Shown one piece after another: positions 1,958 through 43,784 of a DNA stretch of 43,784 nt; positions within the stretch are counted from its first letter, which is position 1, and every line of letters begins with the position of its first letter. The translations under genes were made by a program, and so were the position numbers. The notes under the pieces are model-generated. The model was not told where the DNA came from and did no database searches. It saw only the letters and a program-made list of their open reading frames with translations. Origin of the DNA: Firmicutes bacterium M10-2 (GTDB lineage Bacteria > Bacillota_I > Bacilli_A > Erysipelotrichales > Erysipelotrichaceae); NCBI GenBank assembly GCA_000403415.2, contig KE159684.1, positions 1 through 43,784 on the forward strand, given 5' to 3'.

Positions 1958-2941
1958 ATGTGTACAGCAATTAACTATGTAAATGGACACCACTATATTG
2001 GTCGAAATTTAGATTGGGAAGCCGATTTCCCAAATGATGTTGTCATTACTCCACGAAATTTTGAATTTCATTGGCGCAATGGAAAGACCTTGAAATCTCA
2101 CAATGCGATTATAGGAATGGCAATTATTCAAAACAACTATCCCCTTTATTTCGAAGGAGCCAACGACAAAGGAATCGGTATGGTCGGAACTGCATTTGCC
2201 GGATTCGCAAAATATTTTCCGAAAAAAGAAGGCAAAGAAAATATCGCAAGCTTTGAATTGATTCCTTATATTCTCGGTCAGGCTGAAACTTTGCAGCAAG
2301 CGCGCGAACTTTTTGAAGGATTGAACGTTTGGAATGAAAACTTCAGTGCGCAGCAGCCTGCTTCTCCGCTCCACTGGTTGATTGGTTCAAAAGACGGAAG
2401 CTTTGTGGTTGAATGTACCGAAGAATACGGAATAAAAATTTACGATGACCCTTGGGGCGTTTTAACGAACGGTCCGACCTTTGAATGGATGACCTACAAT
2501 ATGGCAAACTATTCGATCTTAACTCCACAAACGCCTACAATAACATTCGCTCCCGATGTCAAAGGATTCAATTTGTATTCCAGAGGAATGGGCTCATTCG
2601 GATTACCGGGCGGTGTTGATTCTGTAAGTCGTTTTGTTCGTGCTGCCTTTACAAAATTGAATTCCGTTTGCGACAAAGACGATGCTCTCAAAAACGTTTT
2701 CGAATATTTCCATTGCCTGACAAATGTACAGCAAGTTAGCGGAGAAGCGGAAATCAAGCCAGGGCAATTCGAAATCACTCAATATTCCTGTTGCTGTGAC
2801 ACAGATACCGGTATCTTTTATTACACGACATACTATAACCAAAGTATCAACGCAGTCGATATGAATAAAGAAAATCTTGATGGAGATCAGCTTATTTCAT
2901 ATCCGGTCATCAAAACAGCAGAAATCATCACACAAAATTAA
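1958..2941 (+). CDS. Choloylglycine hydrolase / penicillin V acylase family protein
   Basis: This is an Ntn-hydrolase of 327 residues, the normal family length, which hydrolyses amide bonds such as those of conjugated bile salts or penicillin V. Cys2 becomes the catalytic nucleophile once Met1 is removed. Other expected residues align: Arg16 and Asp19 (GRNLDW), Asn171 (LTNGPTF) and Arg225 (SVSRFVRAA). The position that is Asn82 in bile salt hydrolases and Tyr82 in penicillin V acylases is Ala79 here (VGTAF), so the substrate is uncertain and a plain bile salt hydrolase label would be too strong. There is no signal peptide, so it acts in the cytoplasm. The start has AAGAGG upstream. It is a single gene, ending before a terminator repeat. 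Confidence 0.88.
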   Translation: MCTAINYVNGHHYIGRNLDWEADFPNDVVITPRNFEFHWRNGKTLKSHNAIIGMAIIQNNYPLYFEGANDKGIGMVGTAFAGFAKYFPKKEGKENIASFELIPYILGQAETLQQARELFEGLNVWNENFSAQQPASPLHWLIGSKDGSFVVECTEEYGIKIYDDPWGVLTNGPTFEWMTYNMANYSILTPQTPTITFAPDVKGFNLYSRGMGSFGLPGGVDSVSRFVRAAFTKLNSVCDKDDALKNVFEYFHCLTNVQQVSGEAEIKPGQFEITQYSCCCDTDTGIFYYTTYYNQSINAVDMNKENLDGDQLISYPVIKTAEIITQN

Positions 2942-6315: not shown

Positions 6316-6613
6316 GAGGAACATAATATCCTTTTCCTTTTGCTGTACATATGATCGGAGTTCCTGTTTCTTTCTTTAGTTTTTGTCTTAACCGGGATAT
6401 GTGAGTCGTTAATGTTCCTGCTCCAATGTATTGCTCCGTTTGCCATAATGCGATCATAAGATCTTTTCGCAAAACGACATGGCCATCCGCCTTGACCAAA
6501 AGATCAAGGATCTTGGTCTGATAAGGCGTTAGTTCAATCGTCTTATGATCGCAAATTAGTTTTTTCTGTTCAGGATCATAAAAAATATGTTTATCAATCT
6601 CAACTGGATTCAT
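6299..6613 (-). CDS. Stand-alone OmpR/PhoB-type winged-helix DNA-binding protein
   Basis: The 104 residues correspond only to the C-terminal effector domain of an OmpR/PhoB response regulator. The recognisable order is a beta strand start (FYDPEQKKLI), TPYQTKILDLLV, LMIALW, the recognition-helix region LTTHISRLRQKLKK and the wing AKGKGYYVP. The receiver domain with its phospho-accepting Asp is absent, and no such frame exists upstream, where a MerR gene and its terminator lie. I chose ATG 6613 because a perfect TATAAT ends 6 bases before it; the longer ATG-initiated frame from 6643 begins inside the terminator. It could be a functional constitutive DNA-binding protein or a relic of a two-component gene. 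No histidine kinase is nearby. Confidence 0.75.
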   Translation of the reverse strand: MNPVEIDKHIFYDPEQKKLICDHKTIELTPYQTKILDLLVKADGHVVLRKDLMIALWQTEQYIGAGTLTTHISRLRQKLKKETGTPIICTAKGKGYYVPQTVEK

Positions 6614-33894: not shown

Positions 33895-33970
33895 TGGTGG
33901 AGCGTAGGAGGATCGAACTCCTGACCCCCTGCGTGCAAAACAGGTGCTCTCCCAGCTGAGCTAACACCCC
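33895..33970 (-). tRNA. tRNA-Ala (UGC)
   Basis: The 76-base cloverleaf has acceptor GGGGTGT/ACGCTCC and anticodon stem CCTGT/GCAGG around TTTGCAC, giving anticodon TGC. The T-arm has GTTCGAT, and CCA is encoded. It is 19 bases after tRNA-Ile on the same transcript. Confidence 0.97.
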
Positions 33971-33989
33971 ACATCAATAATTCAGCAAA

Positions 33990-34066
<77 letters not shown>

Positions 34067-34085
34067 ATTCGCTGAATGCTCTACT

Positions 34086-34114
34086 ATAATACCGTGCAAA
34101 GATCAGTTTGTCAA
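34086..34114 (-). promoter_or_regulatory. Promoter of the tRNA-Ile/tRNA-Ala pair
   Basis: A perfect TTGACA, a 17-bp spacer and TATTAT lie about 20 bases upstream of tRNA-Ile. Confidence 0.9.
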
Positions 34115-34239
34115 CAAAAGTTTTAAATATATTTAATATAATTTGCGATTCGAAATCGATAAAGCTGAATCCTTTTCCGGAAATCTTTCAACGTCATAAT
34201 AGTTCTAGAAATATTTATAAGCACTTAATAAAGGCTTTA

Positions 34240-34276
34240 AAAAAATAAAAAACCTTTAGGTACTTTACCTAAAGGT
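34240..34276 (-). terminator. Terminator of tRNA-Glu
   Basis: CCTTTAGGTA and TACCTAAAGG form a perfect 10-bp stem with a 3-base loop, then TTTTTTATTTTTTT on the minus strand. Confidence 0.9.
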
Positions 34277-34288
34277 GAATTTATAAAA

Positions 34289-34364
34289 TGGTGACGCGTA
34301 CGGGATTCGAACCCGTGAATGCATGCGTGAAAGGCATGTGAGTTAACCGTTTCTCCAACGCGCC
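34289..34364 (-). tRNA. tRNA-Glu (UUC)
   Basis: The 76-base cloverleaf has acceptor GGCGCGT/ACGCGTC and anticodon stem CATGC/GCATG around CTTTCAC, giving anticodon TTC. The T-arm has GTTCGAA, and CCA is encoded. It has its own promoter and terminator. Confidence 0.95.
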
Positions 34365-34426: not shown

Positions 34427-34618
34427 GAATTTTTTTCGTTTTTTTTAATTATGTTTTTGTTTGATGTTTCTCTCATCAAGCTTACTCATTATAGAATAAA
34501 ACTAAAAAAAAAGAAAGGCCTATACTCATAAAAGTTATTTTCACATATTTTTTGTTTAAAATACAAATAAAAGATAAAATCAATTTAAAATGTACTTTCT
34601 CTTTTCATAAAAAAAAGA

Positions 34619-34731
34619 TTTAGCAACGTCCTATTTTCGCAGGCGCAAAGCCAACTATCGTCAGCGCTGAAGAGCTTAACTTCTGAGTTCGGAATGGAAT
34701 CAGGTGAAACCTCTTCGCTATCATCACTAAA
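34619..34731 (-). rRNA. 5S ribosomal RNA, diverged second copy
   Basis: The 113-base gene is full length and aligns without gaps to the 5S at 39908-40020, with about 27 differences (roughly 76% identity). The conserved cores CATTCCGAACTCAG, GACGATAGTTGGC and TTGCGCCTGCGAAAATAG are intact. Differences in helix I (TTTAGTGATG with CGTTGCTAAA) and in the next helix (GAAGAG with CTCTTC) are paired, so the fold is kept. A run of eight T residues directly follows the gene and may end transcription with the helix I stem. It lies 30 bases after the helicase stop codon. Confidence 0.9.
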
Positions 34732-34743
34732 TCTATGTTTAAA

Positions 34744-34772
34744 TATATACTCGTAATTTTTCTAAAAATCAA
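34744..34772 (-). promoter_or_regulatory. Promoter of the diverged 5S gene, overlapping the helicase stop
   Basis: TTGATT, a 17-bp spacer and TATATA on the minus strand predict a start near 34737, a few bases before the 5S 5' end. The -35 is in the last codons of the helicase gene and the stop codon is in the spacer. Confidence 0.6.
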
Positions 34773-36864
34773 GAATTTTTTTTAAAAACTGCTTAGCACC
34801 TTCTATATCCAATAAATTTTCTATGATATATTCGATCCGAATCGTTTCAGGAAGCAATTCTCGATACTTTACTTTCTCCAAAAAAGCTTCCACCCTTTCT
34901 GGGTCTTTTTTCAAAAACTCCCGAATATGTGAAACATTCCAATCGATTTGTGCGCATTCGTCAATTTCTTTTCTTATATCATAATGAGAATTTGTAAAAG
35001 TTAAAGCTGAACTCCATTCACTGCATCGTACACTTTCCGTTTTCGCATGAATCATCAACATGATCATCAACGTATGATTGATTTTCGTTCCGCAAAATGT
35101 TTGAAGTTTTACATGACCTTCCTCATCTTCCACGAACAAATCGGTCGTTCGATCATAAATTACCTCTCGGAGCAAACGAACATCGGGGTATTCATACGGT
35201 CGTTCTATAATTTCTTTCATTTCTTTGCGAATTTCATCGGATACAACGACTCCGGGAATTCCCAACTTTAAGGACCGACCATCTTCTGCGGGAATCACAT
35301 CAATTCTTTTTTTCTTATTGTCCATACGCATAACTTCCCATGCACGAGATGCAACAAGGATCAAACTGCTCCTCTTTAACCATGGTGGCGGAACGACCTC
35401 CGCTAATTCTTCATTTCCGTAATAGATTTTGAAAGCTTCTTCTCCTTCAAATAAAGAAAAGAAAGAACCCCTCTTTAAAAGGCTTTCCATTTTACGTCCC
35501 GGAATCACTTGATTTCCGCAAATTTCGATCATTTCGATTTTTAATAAATAATTCAAAATCAATGACCTCTGATCATCTTCTATCCAATTCCATACCGCCA
35601 TTGAATGATTCAGATTACGGAATTGCTCAATCGGCATTTCATGATGCTGCAATAAAATCGACAACATTTGATGTGCAAAAACATTAAAAGGTTTTTTGAC
35701 CATAAGAAATGAATCAATCTTCCCTTTTTTCAATAATGAAAGAGCCGCATAAGCTTGAATAAAAAGCCAAGGCTCGCTTGAAATCATATAGAGTTGCGAA
35801 GGTTTCTTTCTTCTTCCGCTTCTGCCGACACGTTGTGCCAACGAAGAAACACTCATAGGGGCATCATATTGTATGACTTCGTCAACAGCACCAATATCGA
35901 TTCCGAGCTCAAGCGTACTCGTACAGCAAATCGTAAACGGTTTCCCTTCCTCTTTCGCAAACATTTCCGCATACCGTTTCAATTCTTTGCTCAAATTGGA
36001 ATAATGAGCAAAATAGTCAACCGAAATATGATCTCGAATCCCCCATTTCTTCAATCTTGTTGCGAAATCCTCGACCGTATGCCTAGAGTTTGCAAACAAA
36101 AGCTGAGAATGCGACTTTGAACGTTCATATACTTTTTCGCATACTCGCTCAAAGTCGTACTTATAATCTTGTGAAGGGATCACAAACTCCAAAGAATACT
36201 TCAAATCTTTTTTCGTTCGATCCATCAATACAAGTGTTTCACGTTCATTATGAAAATACGTTTTTACGGTTTCGACATCCTTTTGCCCTAATGTAGCGGA
36301 CATCGCAATATAACGTGGTCTTTTCTCCATTTGCGATTGGAGCCTTTCTAATAAAGAACAAAGCTGGTATCCTCGATCATTCCCGATAAAACTATGAATC
36401 TCATCAACCAATATCCATTCGGTTTTTCTAAACAATATCGGAAGATATTCCGGATGCATTGTTATAATGGCCTCAATAGATTCAGGCGTAATGAGCATGA
36501 TTCCTTTTGGATTGGACAATAGTTTCATTTTTCTCGCTTTTGAAACTTCCCCATGCCATTGAAAAGTATCAATATTCAAAAACTCGCATAATTCAGTCAG
36601 TCTTTTAAACTGATCATTAATCAAAGCAACCAGCGGAGAAATGTATATAATTTTTATTCCATCATCAAATCCGGTCACAGCATCAATTGCAGGCAAAAAA
36701 GCAGCCTCCGTTTTTCCCGAAGCAGTAGGCGCTGCCAAAACGAGATTGGCTGTTGTTGTTTTTGCGTACCGGATTGTCCCTTCCTGAATCTTCGTAAGCG
36801 AAGGCCATCCTTGTTCATAAATATACTCACGTAAATCTTTTGAAAGCAATTGATAGGCTGACAT
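34762..36864 (-). CDS. Lhr-like superfamily 2 helicase (BrxHI-type)
   Basis: The 700-residue helicase is of the Lhr type. Motif I is APTASGKT (45-52), motif II DEIH (154-157), motif III SAT (189-191) and motif VI QRVGRSGR (345-352). LGIDIGAVDEVIQYDAP is the typical motif V region. The ~350-residue C-terminal part holds winged-helix and Lhr-specific segments with PPPWLKRSSLILVASRAWEV. It should translocate on nucleic acid using ATP. Its ATG overlaps the BrxD-like stop by one base (TAATG), so the proteins are made together. BrxHI helicases adjoin brxD in type 2 BREX; no other BREX genes are visible here. Confidence 0.9.
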   Translation of the reverse strand: MSAYQLLSKDLREYIYEQGWPSLTKIQEGTIRYAKTTTANLVLAAPTASGKTEAAFLPAIDAVTGFDDGIKIIYISPLVALINDQFKRLTELCEFLNIDTFQWHGEVSKARKMKLLSNPKGIMLITPESIEAIITMHPEYLPILFRKTEWILVDEIHSFIGNDRGYQLCSLLERLQSQMEKRPRYIAMSATLGQKDVETVKTYFHNERETLVLMDRTKKDLKYSLEFVIPSQDYKYDFERVCEKVYERSKSHSQLLFANSRHTVEDFATRLKKWGIRDHISVDYFAHYSNLSKELKRYAEMFAKEEGKPFTICCTSTLELGIDIGAVDEVIQYDAPMSVSSLAQRVGRSGRRKKPSQLYMISSEPWLFIQAYAALSLLKKGKIDSFLMVKKPFNVFAHQMLSILLQHHEMPIEQFRNLNHSMAVWNWIEDDQRSLILNYLLKIEMIEICGNQVIPGRKMESLLKRGSFFSLFEGEEAFKIYYGNEELAEVVPPPWLKRSSLILVASRAWEVMRMDNKKKRIDVIPAEDGRSLKLGIPGVVVSDEIRKEMKEIIERPYEYPDVRLLREVIYDRTTDLFVEDEEGHVKLQTFCGTKINHTLMIMLMIHAKTESVRCSEWSSALTFTNSHYDIRKEIDECAQIDWNVSHIREFLKKDPERVEAFLEKVKYRELLPETIRIEYIIENLLDIEGAKQFLKKILDF

Positions 36865-38147
36865 TAAAACACCTCGATCAAATCATGATCATCTACGTCT
36901 TTATACACCCGCGTTCCCTGAAATTTGGACTCTATCAGGTTTTTAAAAGAGCATTGAGGGTTTTGGCGTTTTAAATCGAGCAACTCCAAAAAATCTTTGA
37001 TCACGGTCCTTGGGGTCAAAAATTCATCCGCTCCCGGACGGTTAAGTTGTTCTTCCATATAAAAACGGATATCCTCAAACGATATCGATAGATCGCAATG
37101 ATAGTTTTTATCGTAAATTTTCAGAAGATGTTCCAGCAAGGTATAAATCTCTTCTGGAGTTAACGGTTTTAAACCGAGCACCGTACGATTGGTATTGATC
37201 AATCCTTGATCTTTTTGTTCCGTTCCTAATCTTCCGGCTAAAGCTTTATAACTTAAAAGGCCTCGATAGGAATCATAGATTGTTTTTCTTGTTGCACCGA
37301 AATTCAAAAATAAATGAGAAATCATATTCGTTTTGCATTCATTGTACATATTCAAGATCATTTCATAATTATTCGCTCTGGTTTGAGATCGGGGAAGTTT
37401 ATAAAGATTCACAAGTTCATCGAAATTTACGACAAGTCCCGAATATCCAATTTCCACTACAAATTCATTGAAAGTCTTTAATGCATCAAACCAGTTCATA
37501 TCATTAATGATCACGGAAATACCTAGCAGTTTTTTCGATTCGGTTTTCGTATCGATTTCTCCTCGAAGCCAACGTAAGGCATTCATTTTTAATTCGCGGT
37601 TTTCCTGCAGCATTCCCTGAGCATACAATACGATTGCTTTCCCGAAATCATATGCCATCAGCGGAATCTTAAAACGATCGAATACTTGTTCGATTTTACT
37701 TTCCAAATTGATCATCAAAGGCTTATTTTCCTGCATGCATTGTTCTTGAAGCACTGTAATCCATTTTTGCAGAAGAATTTCCAAACACGAACGATCCTGA
37801 CAAGTTTTAATATGCAGTTGATTCATAATCTCCCGATACAAATTTCTCGCTTTTCCGTTCGAAGAGCAAAAAGAGCGAGTCGGACTCAAATCAATTGTCG
37901 ATACCACAAAATCTTTTTCCAACGCAAATGTATCAATTGTCTGAAGGATGAAACTTTTTCCACTTCCAAAATCTCCTACCCAAAATCGAATGTCGCTTTG
38001 CCCTTCTTTTACATGCTTTAATATAGAAATAATTTCTTCGACTTCCTGTCTGCGCCCGACTAATAAATGATGAATACCCCGTTTTGGTACAACTCCGCCT
38101 TCTAAAGACGTAATAATTTGATGTGCTTCTTTTGGATTAATGTTCAT
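36864..38147 (-). CDS. BrxD-type ATP-binding protein (DUF2791)
   Basis: The 427-residue P-loop ATPase has an N-terminal lead (IITSLEGGVVPKRGIHHLLVGR, core GVVPKRGIHHLLVGR) typical of BREX ATP-binding (DUF2791) proteins. Walker A is GDFGSGKS (58-65) and Walker B LVVNFDEL (238-245). The mid-C segment LFLNFGATRKTIYDSYRGLLSYKALAGRL, core YDSYRGLLSYKALAGRL, fits the same family. It overlaps the TerB-C-like gene by 11 bases and the helicase gene by one base, so all three are tightly coupled. It probably forms an ATP-driven complex with the other two. The exact role in phage defence is inferred from the BREX relationship. Confidence 0.88.
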   Translation of the reverse strand: MNINPKEAHQIITSLEGGVVPKRGIHHLLVGRRQEVEEIISILKHVKEGQSDIRFWVGDFGSGKSFILQTIDTFALEKDFVVSTIDLSPTRSFCSSNGKARNLYREIMNQLHIKTCQDRSCLEILLQKWITVLQEQCMQENKPLMINLESKIEQVFDRFKIPLMAYDFGKAIVLYAQGMLQENRELKMNALRWLRGEIDTKTESKKLLGISVIINDMNWFDALKTFNEFVVEIGYSGLVVNFDELVNLYKLPRSQTRANNYEMILNMYNECKTNMISHLFLNFGATRKTIYDSYRGLLSYKALAGRLGTEQKDQGLINTNRTVLGLKPLTPEEIYTLLEHLLKIYDKNYHCDLSISFEDIRFYMEEQLNRPGADEFLTPRTVIKDFLELLDLKRQNPQCSFKNLIESKFQGTRVYKDVDDHDLIEVF

Positions 38148-39810
38148 TGAGAGCCTCCTTTACTAAATCGATATAATAAGGATCGATCATTACTTGATCT
38201 TGATCTAAAATAACAATCGCATCATTAAGGATCGAAAAATACTGTTCGTTGATCTGATCGATCAATGATTGAGAAAATGTTTTATTGTTTACTGCTAATT
38301 GTTCGAATTTTCGAATAGTCATCGGCTGTTCCAAAAGTTGTTCAACAATTTTTCTGATCTCATCTTTTTGCTCTGGTATGCATAAGTCATTGTTGATTTC
38401 ATGATGTTCTTTTTGAATTTCTTCTTCGCGATGATCTTGAGGGAGAAAATCTTGGATGTGATCAAATGTTTTTTCAAAATCCGTTCGCGACTGCTCCACT
38501 TCTTGCAAAGAAAGCGAAATCGTTTTCCTTTTTAACTGATCAAGCTCTAAAAGAGCTTTGTATGTGAACAAATTCCATGGCTGCTCAAGTAACCATTCCC
38601 ATTCATTTTTCCGAGAAGGATGAATAGTACGATCAATTTCTTTTCTTAAAGAAGAAGTTACTTTTTTACCTTTGGCAAAAAAATACAAAGCAATAATTTT
38701 CAATGGATAAGATTGTTTTAACATCTCTTTTAATAATCGATCGAGATCATTTTTTTGTTCATAGAGCGTTTTCATGATTTGTACACGATCTTTCAGATCT
38801 TCACGAATCAATTTCTCCAAATAATAAGGCCATACCGTTTCATGAATTCTTTCCAAATAAACGATTAATTCATCGATATCTTTTTCCCGAACAATATTTT
38901 CTTGCTGTTTTAATAATTCATCAAAAAGTGTTTGTCCTCTTTTTAAAAACCTTTTTTTTACAGCTTCTAATTCTTTTTCTTCATCAAGGAGCTTTGTATT
39001 TTTTGTTGCCGGAAGTTGTCTGCGAATCATATTCTCGCTGATTTTCAATAAATAACGTAAAAAATTCTTAAATGCAGAACTCCTCTTTAAATAATGAATT
39101 TCTCCACACGCAAGAGCCGTTAATCTATTTTTAATCATGCTGCGTTTTGGAAAAATTTGATCCTGATCAAGCAATTCATGAATAAGGGTCAAATAAATTT
39201 TAATGATAAGTTTTGCGGTAGGTGGATATTTTAATAAATTGGAATTTCGGCAAGGCGTCATATCCAAAAGCATTGCTTCGTGAAAAGAAACGATTTCTTG
39301 TTTTCTTAATACTCCATCGCGATCCCACCAAGTCGGACAAAGACCTTCTCTTAATAATCCGTATTTTTCAATCGATAATTGGTCTGGTGCCGGAAGAGAA
39401 TGTTCTTTTTCCAATAAAAAATGATATATCTCAACTTGTTCCTTTTCTCCTAAAAGCCGCAAAATATGGCGATAAGAATATTCATCCAGAGAAATACGGT
39501 AATGACGATTTTCATATCGGTGAAGTGCATGATCAAAAGATAAAAGAGCCAGCTCAATAAATAAAGTGGTTGAAAAATCTTCAAGTTGAATGCGAGAAGA
39601 TAAAAATTCGCACACCTCGCAATATAAGATCCGAGCACCATCAACAATTTGAGGATTAGAATCCATCCAAAGGTAATCGGCATCGATCTTATTCAAATAG
39701 GGGCATTCATAAATATTTCGCTCTTTTATATTTCGTTCTTTTTTTTGTTCCTCGTTGAAAGAAGAGGAAGAATGGAACTGCTCAGGTTCTAAATCGGTAA
39801 TATCAATCAT
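38137..39810 (-). CDS. TerB-C domain-like protein, first gene of the BrxD/helicase module
   Basis: The 557-residue soluble protein opens with a polar Ser/Glu/Lys-rich tail (about 1-35). Next is a helical part with NPQIVDGARILYCEVCEFL and a Lys/Glu-rich stretch at about 275-320. The end (about 490-557) resembles a TerB-C domain: LLEQPMTIRKFEQLAV, SLIDQINEQYFSILNDAIVI and a final helix. I cannot confirm a TerB-N domain. No nuclease, protease or methylase motif is visible. No Shine-Dalgarno precedes the ATG, and the -10 ends 6 bases before it, so the mRNA is probably leaderless. It may be a scaffold or sensor for the ATPase and helicase. Confidence 0.75.
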   Translation of the reverse strand: MIDITDLEPEQFHSSSSFNEEQKKERNIKERNIYECPYLNKIDADYLWMDSNPQIVDGARILYCEVCEFLSSRIQLEDFSTTLFIELALLSFDHALHRYENRHYRISLDEYSYRHILRLLGEKEQVEIYHFLLEKEHSLPAPDQLSIEKYGLLREGLCPTWWDRDGVLRKQEIVSFHEAMLLDMTPCRNSNLLKYPPTAKLIIKIYLTLIHELLDQDQIFPKRSMIKNRLTALACGEIHYLKRSSAFKNFLRYLLKISENMIRRQLPATKNTKLLDEEKELEAVKKRFLKRGQTLFDELLKQQENIVREKDIDELIVYLERIHETVWPYYLEKLIREDLKDRVQIMKTLYEQKNDLDRLLKEMLKQSYPLKIIALYFFAKGKKVTSSLRKEIDRTIHPSRKNEWEWLLEQPWNLFTYKALLELDQLKRKTISLSLQEVEQSRTDFEKTFDHIQDFLPQDHREEEIQKEHHEINNDLCIPEQKDEIRKIVEQLLEQPMTIRKFEQLAVNNKTFSQSLIDQINEQYFSILNDAIVILDQDQVMIDPYYIDLVKEALNEH

Positions 39811-39816
39811 AAAAAT

Positions 39817-39825
39817 ATTGTACCA
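39817..39825 (-). promoter_or_regulatory. Extended -10 promoter of the three-gene module, predicted leaderless
   Basis: TGGTACAAT on the minus strand is an extended -10. Six bases then lead to the ATG at 39810. The -35 position reads TGAATA, a poor match. Confidence 0.55.
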
Positions 39826-39861
39826 CGATTAGGAAAGGATATTCATTTAACGCTTAAAAGC

Positions 39862-39888
39862 AAAAAAAGCACCTTTTCCAAAGGTGCC
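39862..39888 (-). terminator. Terminator of the rRNA operon after the main 5S
   Basis: On the minus strand GCACCTTT and AAAGGTGC form a perfect 8-bp stem with a 3-base loop, then seven T residues. It separates the rRNA operon from the three-gene module. A longer T-run also lies directly after the 5S. Confidence 0.9.
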
Positions 39889-39907
39889 ACATAAAAAAAA
39901 AAAAAGA

Positions 39908-40020
39908 CCCGGCAACGTGCTATTTTCGCAGGCGCAAGGCCAACTATCGTCGCCGCTGGGGTGCTTAACTGCTGAGTTCGGAATGTATTCAGGTGTCTCC
40001 ATCCCGCCTTCGTCACCGGA
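39908..40020 (-). rRNA. 5S ribosomal RNA, operon copy
   Basis: The 113-base gene has helix I TCCGGTGACG / CGTTGCCGGG and the standard CATTCCGAACTCAG loop. It is about 83 bases after the 23S end, in the normal 16S-23S-5S order. Confidence 0.95.
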
Positions 40021-40103
40021 TCTTCTTTTGCTCGATCCCTCAAAACCGACATCCACTCTTCTCTCTTACACTTCTTTCGTCTCTTTCGCAAGTCGCGGGC
40101 TCT

Positions 40104-43021
<2,918 letters not shown>

Positions 43022-43272: not shown

Positions 43273-43784
<512 letters not shown>

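What the first reader, a model, noticed from the sequence alone, without database searches (positions are those of the whole stretch)
34762..39810. Stand-alone three-gene module: TerB-C-like protein, BrxD-type ATPase and BrxHI/Lhr-type helicase
Three minus-strand genes overlap by 11 bases and by 1 base, so they are made as one unit. The last two resemble BrxD and BrxHI, known neighbours in type 2 BREX, while the first has a TerB-C-like end and no recognised catalytic motif. The BREX methylase (PglX), phosphatase (PglZ) and PglY/PglW are absent from both sides. The set may be a compact defence or DNA-surveillance system that keeps the ATP-driven motor and replaces the modification part with a TerB-C protein. 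The defence role is inference; the gene content and overlaps are seen directly.
Basis: partly seen in the sequence, partly recalled or inferred. Interest (0 to 1): 0.85.

Follow-up and report, generated by a model that had tools for sequence, protein, structure and literature searches.

The report
Shango defence operon beside ribosomal RNA genes
The three genes are a complete but divergent copy of Shango, an already described anti-phage defence system, not a new stripped-down BREX; the unusual part is that it sits behind a ribosomal RNA operon and is followed by its own diverged, still foldable copy of the 5S ribosomal RNA gene.

Summary
The genes, coordinates and overlaps are correct. The trio is a complete Shango operon (SngA-SngB-SngC), a known anti-phage system, so the 'new compact BREX-like module' reading falls. 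PADLOC scores: helicase SngC 551 bits against BrxHI 362; ATPase SngB 457 against BrxD 135; first protein SngA 48 bits over its C-terminal half only. The same three-gene order recurs in 28 related loci. PglZ is absent from this genome. This copy is on a divergent Shango branch (with OPF54, an Aerococcaceae and G577; 100% support), and its SngA lacks the TerB_N domain of most others. Not noticed before: the operon lies between two 5S rRNA genes, behind 16S-23S-5S. The downstream 5S is the genome's only divergent one. The same layout occurs in a congener, OPF54, and in none of 27 other Shango loci. The two downstream 5S genes are sisters, apart from all normal 5S genes, and keep the 5S fold through paired changes. 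I found no published description of that linkage; it is seen in one genus only. Shango's mechanism is listed as unknown; mine is inference.

The parts
38137..39810 (-). sngA: 557-aa protein with TerB_C at its C-terminal end (about residues 422-550), variable N-terminal half, no TerB_N detected
   Evidence: ORF; Pfam TerB_C; PADLOC SngA 2.5e-13
36864..38147 (-). sngB: 427-aa BrxC/BrxD-family ATPase, Walker A GDFGSGKS at residue 58
   Evidence: PADLOC SngB 2.3e-137
34762..36864 (-). sngC: 700-aa SF2 helicase with DEIH (154), SAT (189) and QRVGRSGR (344)
   Evidence: PADLOC SngC 1.5e-165
34618..34731 (-). 5S': divergent 5S rRNA gene not behind a 23S, 30 nt after the sngC stop
   Evidence: Rfam RF00001 79.7 bits; compensatory changes; tree
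39907..40020 (-). canonical 5S rRNA of the rRNA operon upstream
40102..43021 (-). 23S rRNA
43275..43784 (-). 16S rRNA, cut by the end of the contig
39868..39888 (-). intrinsic terminator of the rRNA operon, between 5S and sngA
   Evidence: fold z -3.2
39811..39830 (-). putative extended -10 promoter element (TGGTACAAT) ending 5 nt before the sngA ATG
   Evidence: sequence, conserved in OPF54; inference
33895..34364 (-). tRNA-Glu, tRNA-Ile and tRNA-Ala downstream of 5S'

Best explanation
The trio is a complete Shango anti-phage operon, sngA-sngB-sngC, of a divergent branch, lying just downstream of an rRNA operon and separated from it by that operon's terminator. Shown: identity, gene order, recurrence, conserved location in two species, intact ATPase and helicase motifs. 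Inferred mechanism: SngB, an ATPase of the BrxC/BrxD family, acts as an ATP-driven loader or clamp; SngC, an SF2 helicase of the BrxHI/DruE/DpdJ group, is the motor that runs along invading DNA or its replication intermediates; SngA is the fast-changing sensor or adaptor that ties the motor to a phage feature through its variable N-terminal part, its TerB-C end docking on the conserved SngB-SngC pair. No nuclease domain was found, so the likeliest outcome is that phage DNA replication is stalled or remodelled, or the DNA is handed to a host nuclease. I put the Shango identity at about 0.95 and this mechanism at about 0.3. The downstream 5S' is most likely a diverged but structurally maintained 5S gene that ended up next to the operon, not a working part of it.
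For: PADLOC models: SngC 551 vs BrxHI 362 bits, SngB 457 vs BrxD 135, SngA 2.5e-13. NCBIfam BREX_BrxD scores 135, far under its cut-off of 350. A-B-C order in all 27 other loci examined and in OPF54. SngB tree: this copy, OPF54, Aerococcaceae and G577 form one branch with 100% support. Published: SngC groups with BrxHI, DruE and DpdJ as a possibly distinct SF2 clade (PMC12278908); Shango lowers plating of several phages (PMC10250203). Identity between congeners: SngB 82%, SngC 70%, SngA 41% and 17-19% over residues 51-150, the pattern expected of a recognition subunit.
Against: SngA matches the Shango model only over its C-terminal half and has no detectable TerB_N. Profile comparison joins it to other SngA proteins only over 65 columns at the C-terminal end (87% probability). 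The SngB branch to ordinary Shango is long. The structure model of SngA is poor (mean pLDDT 57) and gave no significant fold match (best E 0.59). Anti-phage activity was not tested for this copy, and the mechanism rests on family resemblance.
Confidence: 0.85

Rival explanations
1. A new module cut down from type 2 BREX, in which a TerB-C protein replaces the modification part.
For: BrxD-like and BrxHI-like proteins without PglX and PglZ.
Against: Shango models beat the BrxD and BrxHI models by hundreds of bits, and the set has been described and tested before.
Confidence: 0.03
2. A sister system of Shango: same motor pair but a different first protein, distinct enough in target or effect to deserve its own name.
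For: Long SngB branch; SngA without TerB_N and with profile similarity to other SngA only at the C-terminal end.
Against: SngA still hits the SngA model and TerB_C; operon order is the same; TerB_N is also not detected in G063, which sits in the ordinary branch.
Confidence: 0.1
3. A locus in which the divergent 5S' RNA is a functional part of the defence operon, for example a decoy or a special 5S for ribosomes during infection.
For: 5S' is kept beside the operon in two species with compensatory changes and may have its own promoter in both (reading).
Against: None of 27 other Shango loci has a 5S nearby; G577 and the Aerococcaceae contig of the same branch are too short to judge fully; a diverging 5S gene needs no defence role.
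Confidence: 0.05
4. A housekeeping DNA-repair or stress operon rather than defence.
For: Chromosomal, kept at the same site in two species; the neighbouring window genes are of housekeeping type; SngC is related to Lhr-type helicases.
Against: Patchy distribution (32 of 316 order genomes), fast-changing SngA, and phage protection shown for homologous operons.
Confidence: 0.07

Closest known systems
Shango (SngABC), E. coli and P. aeruginosa PA14 (PMC10250203; Millman 2022 as cited there)
   Same: TerB-like protein, BrxD-like ATPase and SF2 helicase; stand-alone; all three PADLOC models hit
   Different: SngA has TerB_C but no detectable TerB_N, and its N-terminal half matches no other SngA outside its branch; SngB is on a separate, long branch; the operon lies in an rRNA context with a divergent 5S downstream
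Type 2 BREX (BrxD, BrxHI)
   Same: Homologous ATPase and helicase
   Different: No PglZ in the genome and no PglX seen nearby; the scores favour Shango
Shango operon of Erysipelotrichaceae bacterium OPF54 (BQKD01000001.1)
   Same: Same gene order, same rRNA location, same 5S'
   Different: SngA only 41% identical; a further ORF and two tRNA-Ile/Ala pairs downstream instead of tRNA-Glu and one pair

Membership tests
Shango | SngC-type SF2 helicase | tested here: met
   PADLOC SngC 1.5e-165, full length (2-696 on 4-719 of 720), above BrxHI
Shango | SngB-type ATPase with intact P-loop | tested here: met
   PADLOC SngB 2.3e-137; GDFGSGKS at residue 58
Shango | SngA with a TerB-family domain | tested here: met
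   TerB_C above the Pfam cut-off; SngA model 2.5e-13, over the C-terminal half only
Shango | TerB_N together with TerB_C in SngA (common, but I do not treat it as defining) | tested here: not met
   No TerB_N in this copy, OPF54 or the Aerococcaceae; detected in four of five ordinary SngA proteins scanned, one of them just under Pfam's cut-off, and not in G063
Shango | Three adjacent genes in the order A-B-C | tested here: met
Shango | Protection against phages | not testable with these tools
   Published for E. coli and P. aeruginosa copies
BREX | PglZ phosphatase | tested here: not met
   No PF08665 match in the genome
BREX | PglX methylase | tested here: inconclusive
   None among the window proteins scanned; not searched genome-wide
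BREX | BrxD equivalog score | tested here: not met
   135 bits against a cut-off of 350

The most novel reading that the evidence does not exclude
The divergent 5S' RNA is a working part of this Shango branch: a relative of a ribosomal RNA kept with a defence operon, which would link translation to anti-phage defence.
Probability: 0.05. Interest if true: 0.75.

Novelty: new member of a known kind. Interest (0 to 1): 0.3.

Why it matters
It removes a supposed new system from the list and adds a divergent branch to Shango whose sensor-like subunit lacks the usual TerB_N part, useful for mapping which subunit does what. The rRNA-operon location, with a diverged but fold-preserving 5S gene kept next to the operon in two species, is a small testable puzzle about how defence genes settle at rRNA loci and why the extra 5S is kept.

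Tried and rejected
The new-module reading was rejected on PADLOC scores. A general link of Shango with 5S or rRNA was tested in 27 other loci and rejected, although several of those contigs are short. A foreign donor for 5S' was sought in 196 family and 392 phylum genomes; nothing was closer than the OPF54 5S'. An exact-pattern search for 5S' in 273 family genomes was badly designed (gap too long; it missed the known copy) and says nothing. The SngA structure prediction was poor (pLDDT 57), and the fold search gave only insignificant winged-helix matches. Misassembly at the rRNA operon is unlikely, because OPF54, in a 3.1-Mb contig, has the same layout. Contamination is unlikely, because the canonical 5S beside the operon has the same score as the other canonical copies of this genome. 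Paper searches for a 5S or rRNA link with defence islands gave nothing relevant.

Full report
Observation. Pfam finds TerB_C in the first, BrxC_BrxD in the second and DEAD/Helicase_C in the third.

Identity. PADLOC has models for exactly this trio: SngA, SngB and SngC of Shango. The helicase scores 551 bits to SngC against 362 to BrxHI. The ATPase scores 457 to SngB against 135 to BrxD. The first protein hits only SngA, 2.5e-13, over its C-terminal half. NCBIfam's BrxD equivalog is missed by a wide margin (135 against a cut-off of 350). Shango was reported in E. coli and P. aeruginosa as a TerB-like protein plus ATPase and helicase with modest protection against several phages (PMC10250203). 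A table in PMC10855318 lists its mechanism as unknown.

Recurrence. SngB at E<=1e-60 was found in 7 of 395 class genomes (an even draw) and 32 of 316 order genomes. In all 27 loci read, 26 from those genomes and one Aerococcaceae contig, sngA, sngB and sngC lie in that order (in G173 other ORFs lie between them). PglZ is absent from this genome. Of 29 Shango-bearing genomes, 8 have some PglZ match at E<=0.001, and the three strong ones are not next to Shango: in OPF54 it is about 0.9 Mb away, in G579 about 34 kb away, in G641 on another contig. The trio is therefore stand-alone.

A divergent branch. A SngB tree groups this copy with OPF54, with an Aerococcaceae contig (JACBXN010000042.1) and with genome G577, at 100% support and on a long branch from ordinary Shango. 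In the three members scanned, SngA has TerB_C but no detectable TerB_N. In four of five ordinary SngA proteins TerB_N is found, one of them just under Pfam's cut-off. Profile comparison joins the two SngA groups only over 65 columns at the C-terminal end. Between the two congeners SngB is 82% identical, SngC 70% and SngA 41%, with residues 51-150 of SngA at 17-19%.

The rRNA setting. Reading along the minus strand the order is 16S (cut by the contig end), 23S, 5S, terminator, sngA, sngB, sngC, a second 5S (5S'), tRNA-Glu, tRNA-Ile, tRNA-Ala, then a run of protein genes that by their sequences are ftsX-, envC- and ftsE-like. The other nine 5S genes of this genome all score 67.0 bits, while 5S' scores 79.7. 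In OPF54 the layout is the same, and there too 5S' (72.9 bits) stands apart from the other 5S genes (82-89 bits); of the copies whose surroundings were read, only 5S' lacks a 23S before it. 5S' is 76% identical to its own genome's 5S but 84% to the OPF54 5S'. In a tree the two 5S' are sisters at 100%, apart from all normal 5S genes. The fold is kept by paired changes: in helix I CG to UA and GC to AU, in helix II UA to AU, in helix IV GC to CG. A possible promoter (TTGATT-17-TATATA here, TTGCTT-17-TATCTT in OPF54) precedes 5S' in both; this is my reading of the sequences, not a measurement. No other Shango locus examined lies beside an rRNA gene. At the matching site in relative G003 the tRNA-Ile/Ala genes have neither Shango nor 5S' before them, as far as that contig reaches, about 0.5 kb.

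Expression. The rRNA operon ends in a terminator before sngA. AATCGTGnTACAAT stands 5-6 nt before the sngA ATG in both species, which suggests an own promoter and perhaps a leaderless mRNA (inference).

Mechanism. Shown: intact Walker A in SngB, and DEIH, SAT and QRVGRSGR in SngC; no nuclease domain detected by Pfam in any of the three. Inferred: an ATP-driven loader and an SF2 motor act on invading DNA, with SngA as the variable sensor or adaptor. The last 75 or so residues of SngA are modelled with fair confidence as helices plus a strand pair, winged-helix-like, but fold matches are not significant.

Verdict. A known system, a divergent member, ordinary in kind. The 5S' linkage is the only really unexpected part and is confined to one genus so far.

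Noticed in passing
window 34618-34731 (-) and L015 11444-11558 (+): Divergent 5S rRNA gene behind the Shango operon, without a 23S of its own, fold kept by compensatory changes, shared by two congeners.
   Followed up: partly
window 39811-39840 (-) and L015 around 6425-6449: Extended -10 element TGnTACAAT 5-6 nt before the sngA ATG in both species, which suggests a leaderless mRNA.
   Followed up: partly
G002 contig C117 (L089): G002, listed as the same genus, has a single 5S unlike those of the other two congeners; that rRNA contig may be a contaminant.
   Followed up: no
window 1958-2941 (+): Choloylglycine (bile salt) hydrolase family gene (Pfam CBAH 2.5e-79), which fits a gut bacterium.
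   Followed up: no
G001 C1:1802392-1802913: OPF54 encodes a PglZ (867-aa frame) about 0.9 Mb from its Shango, perhaps a separate BREX locus.
   Followed up: no
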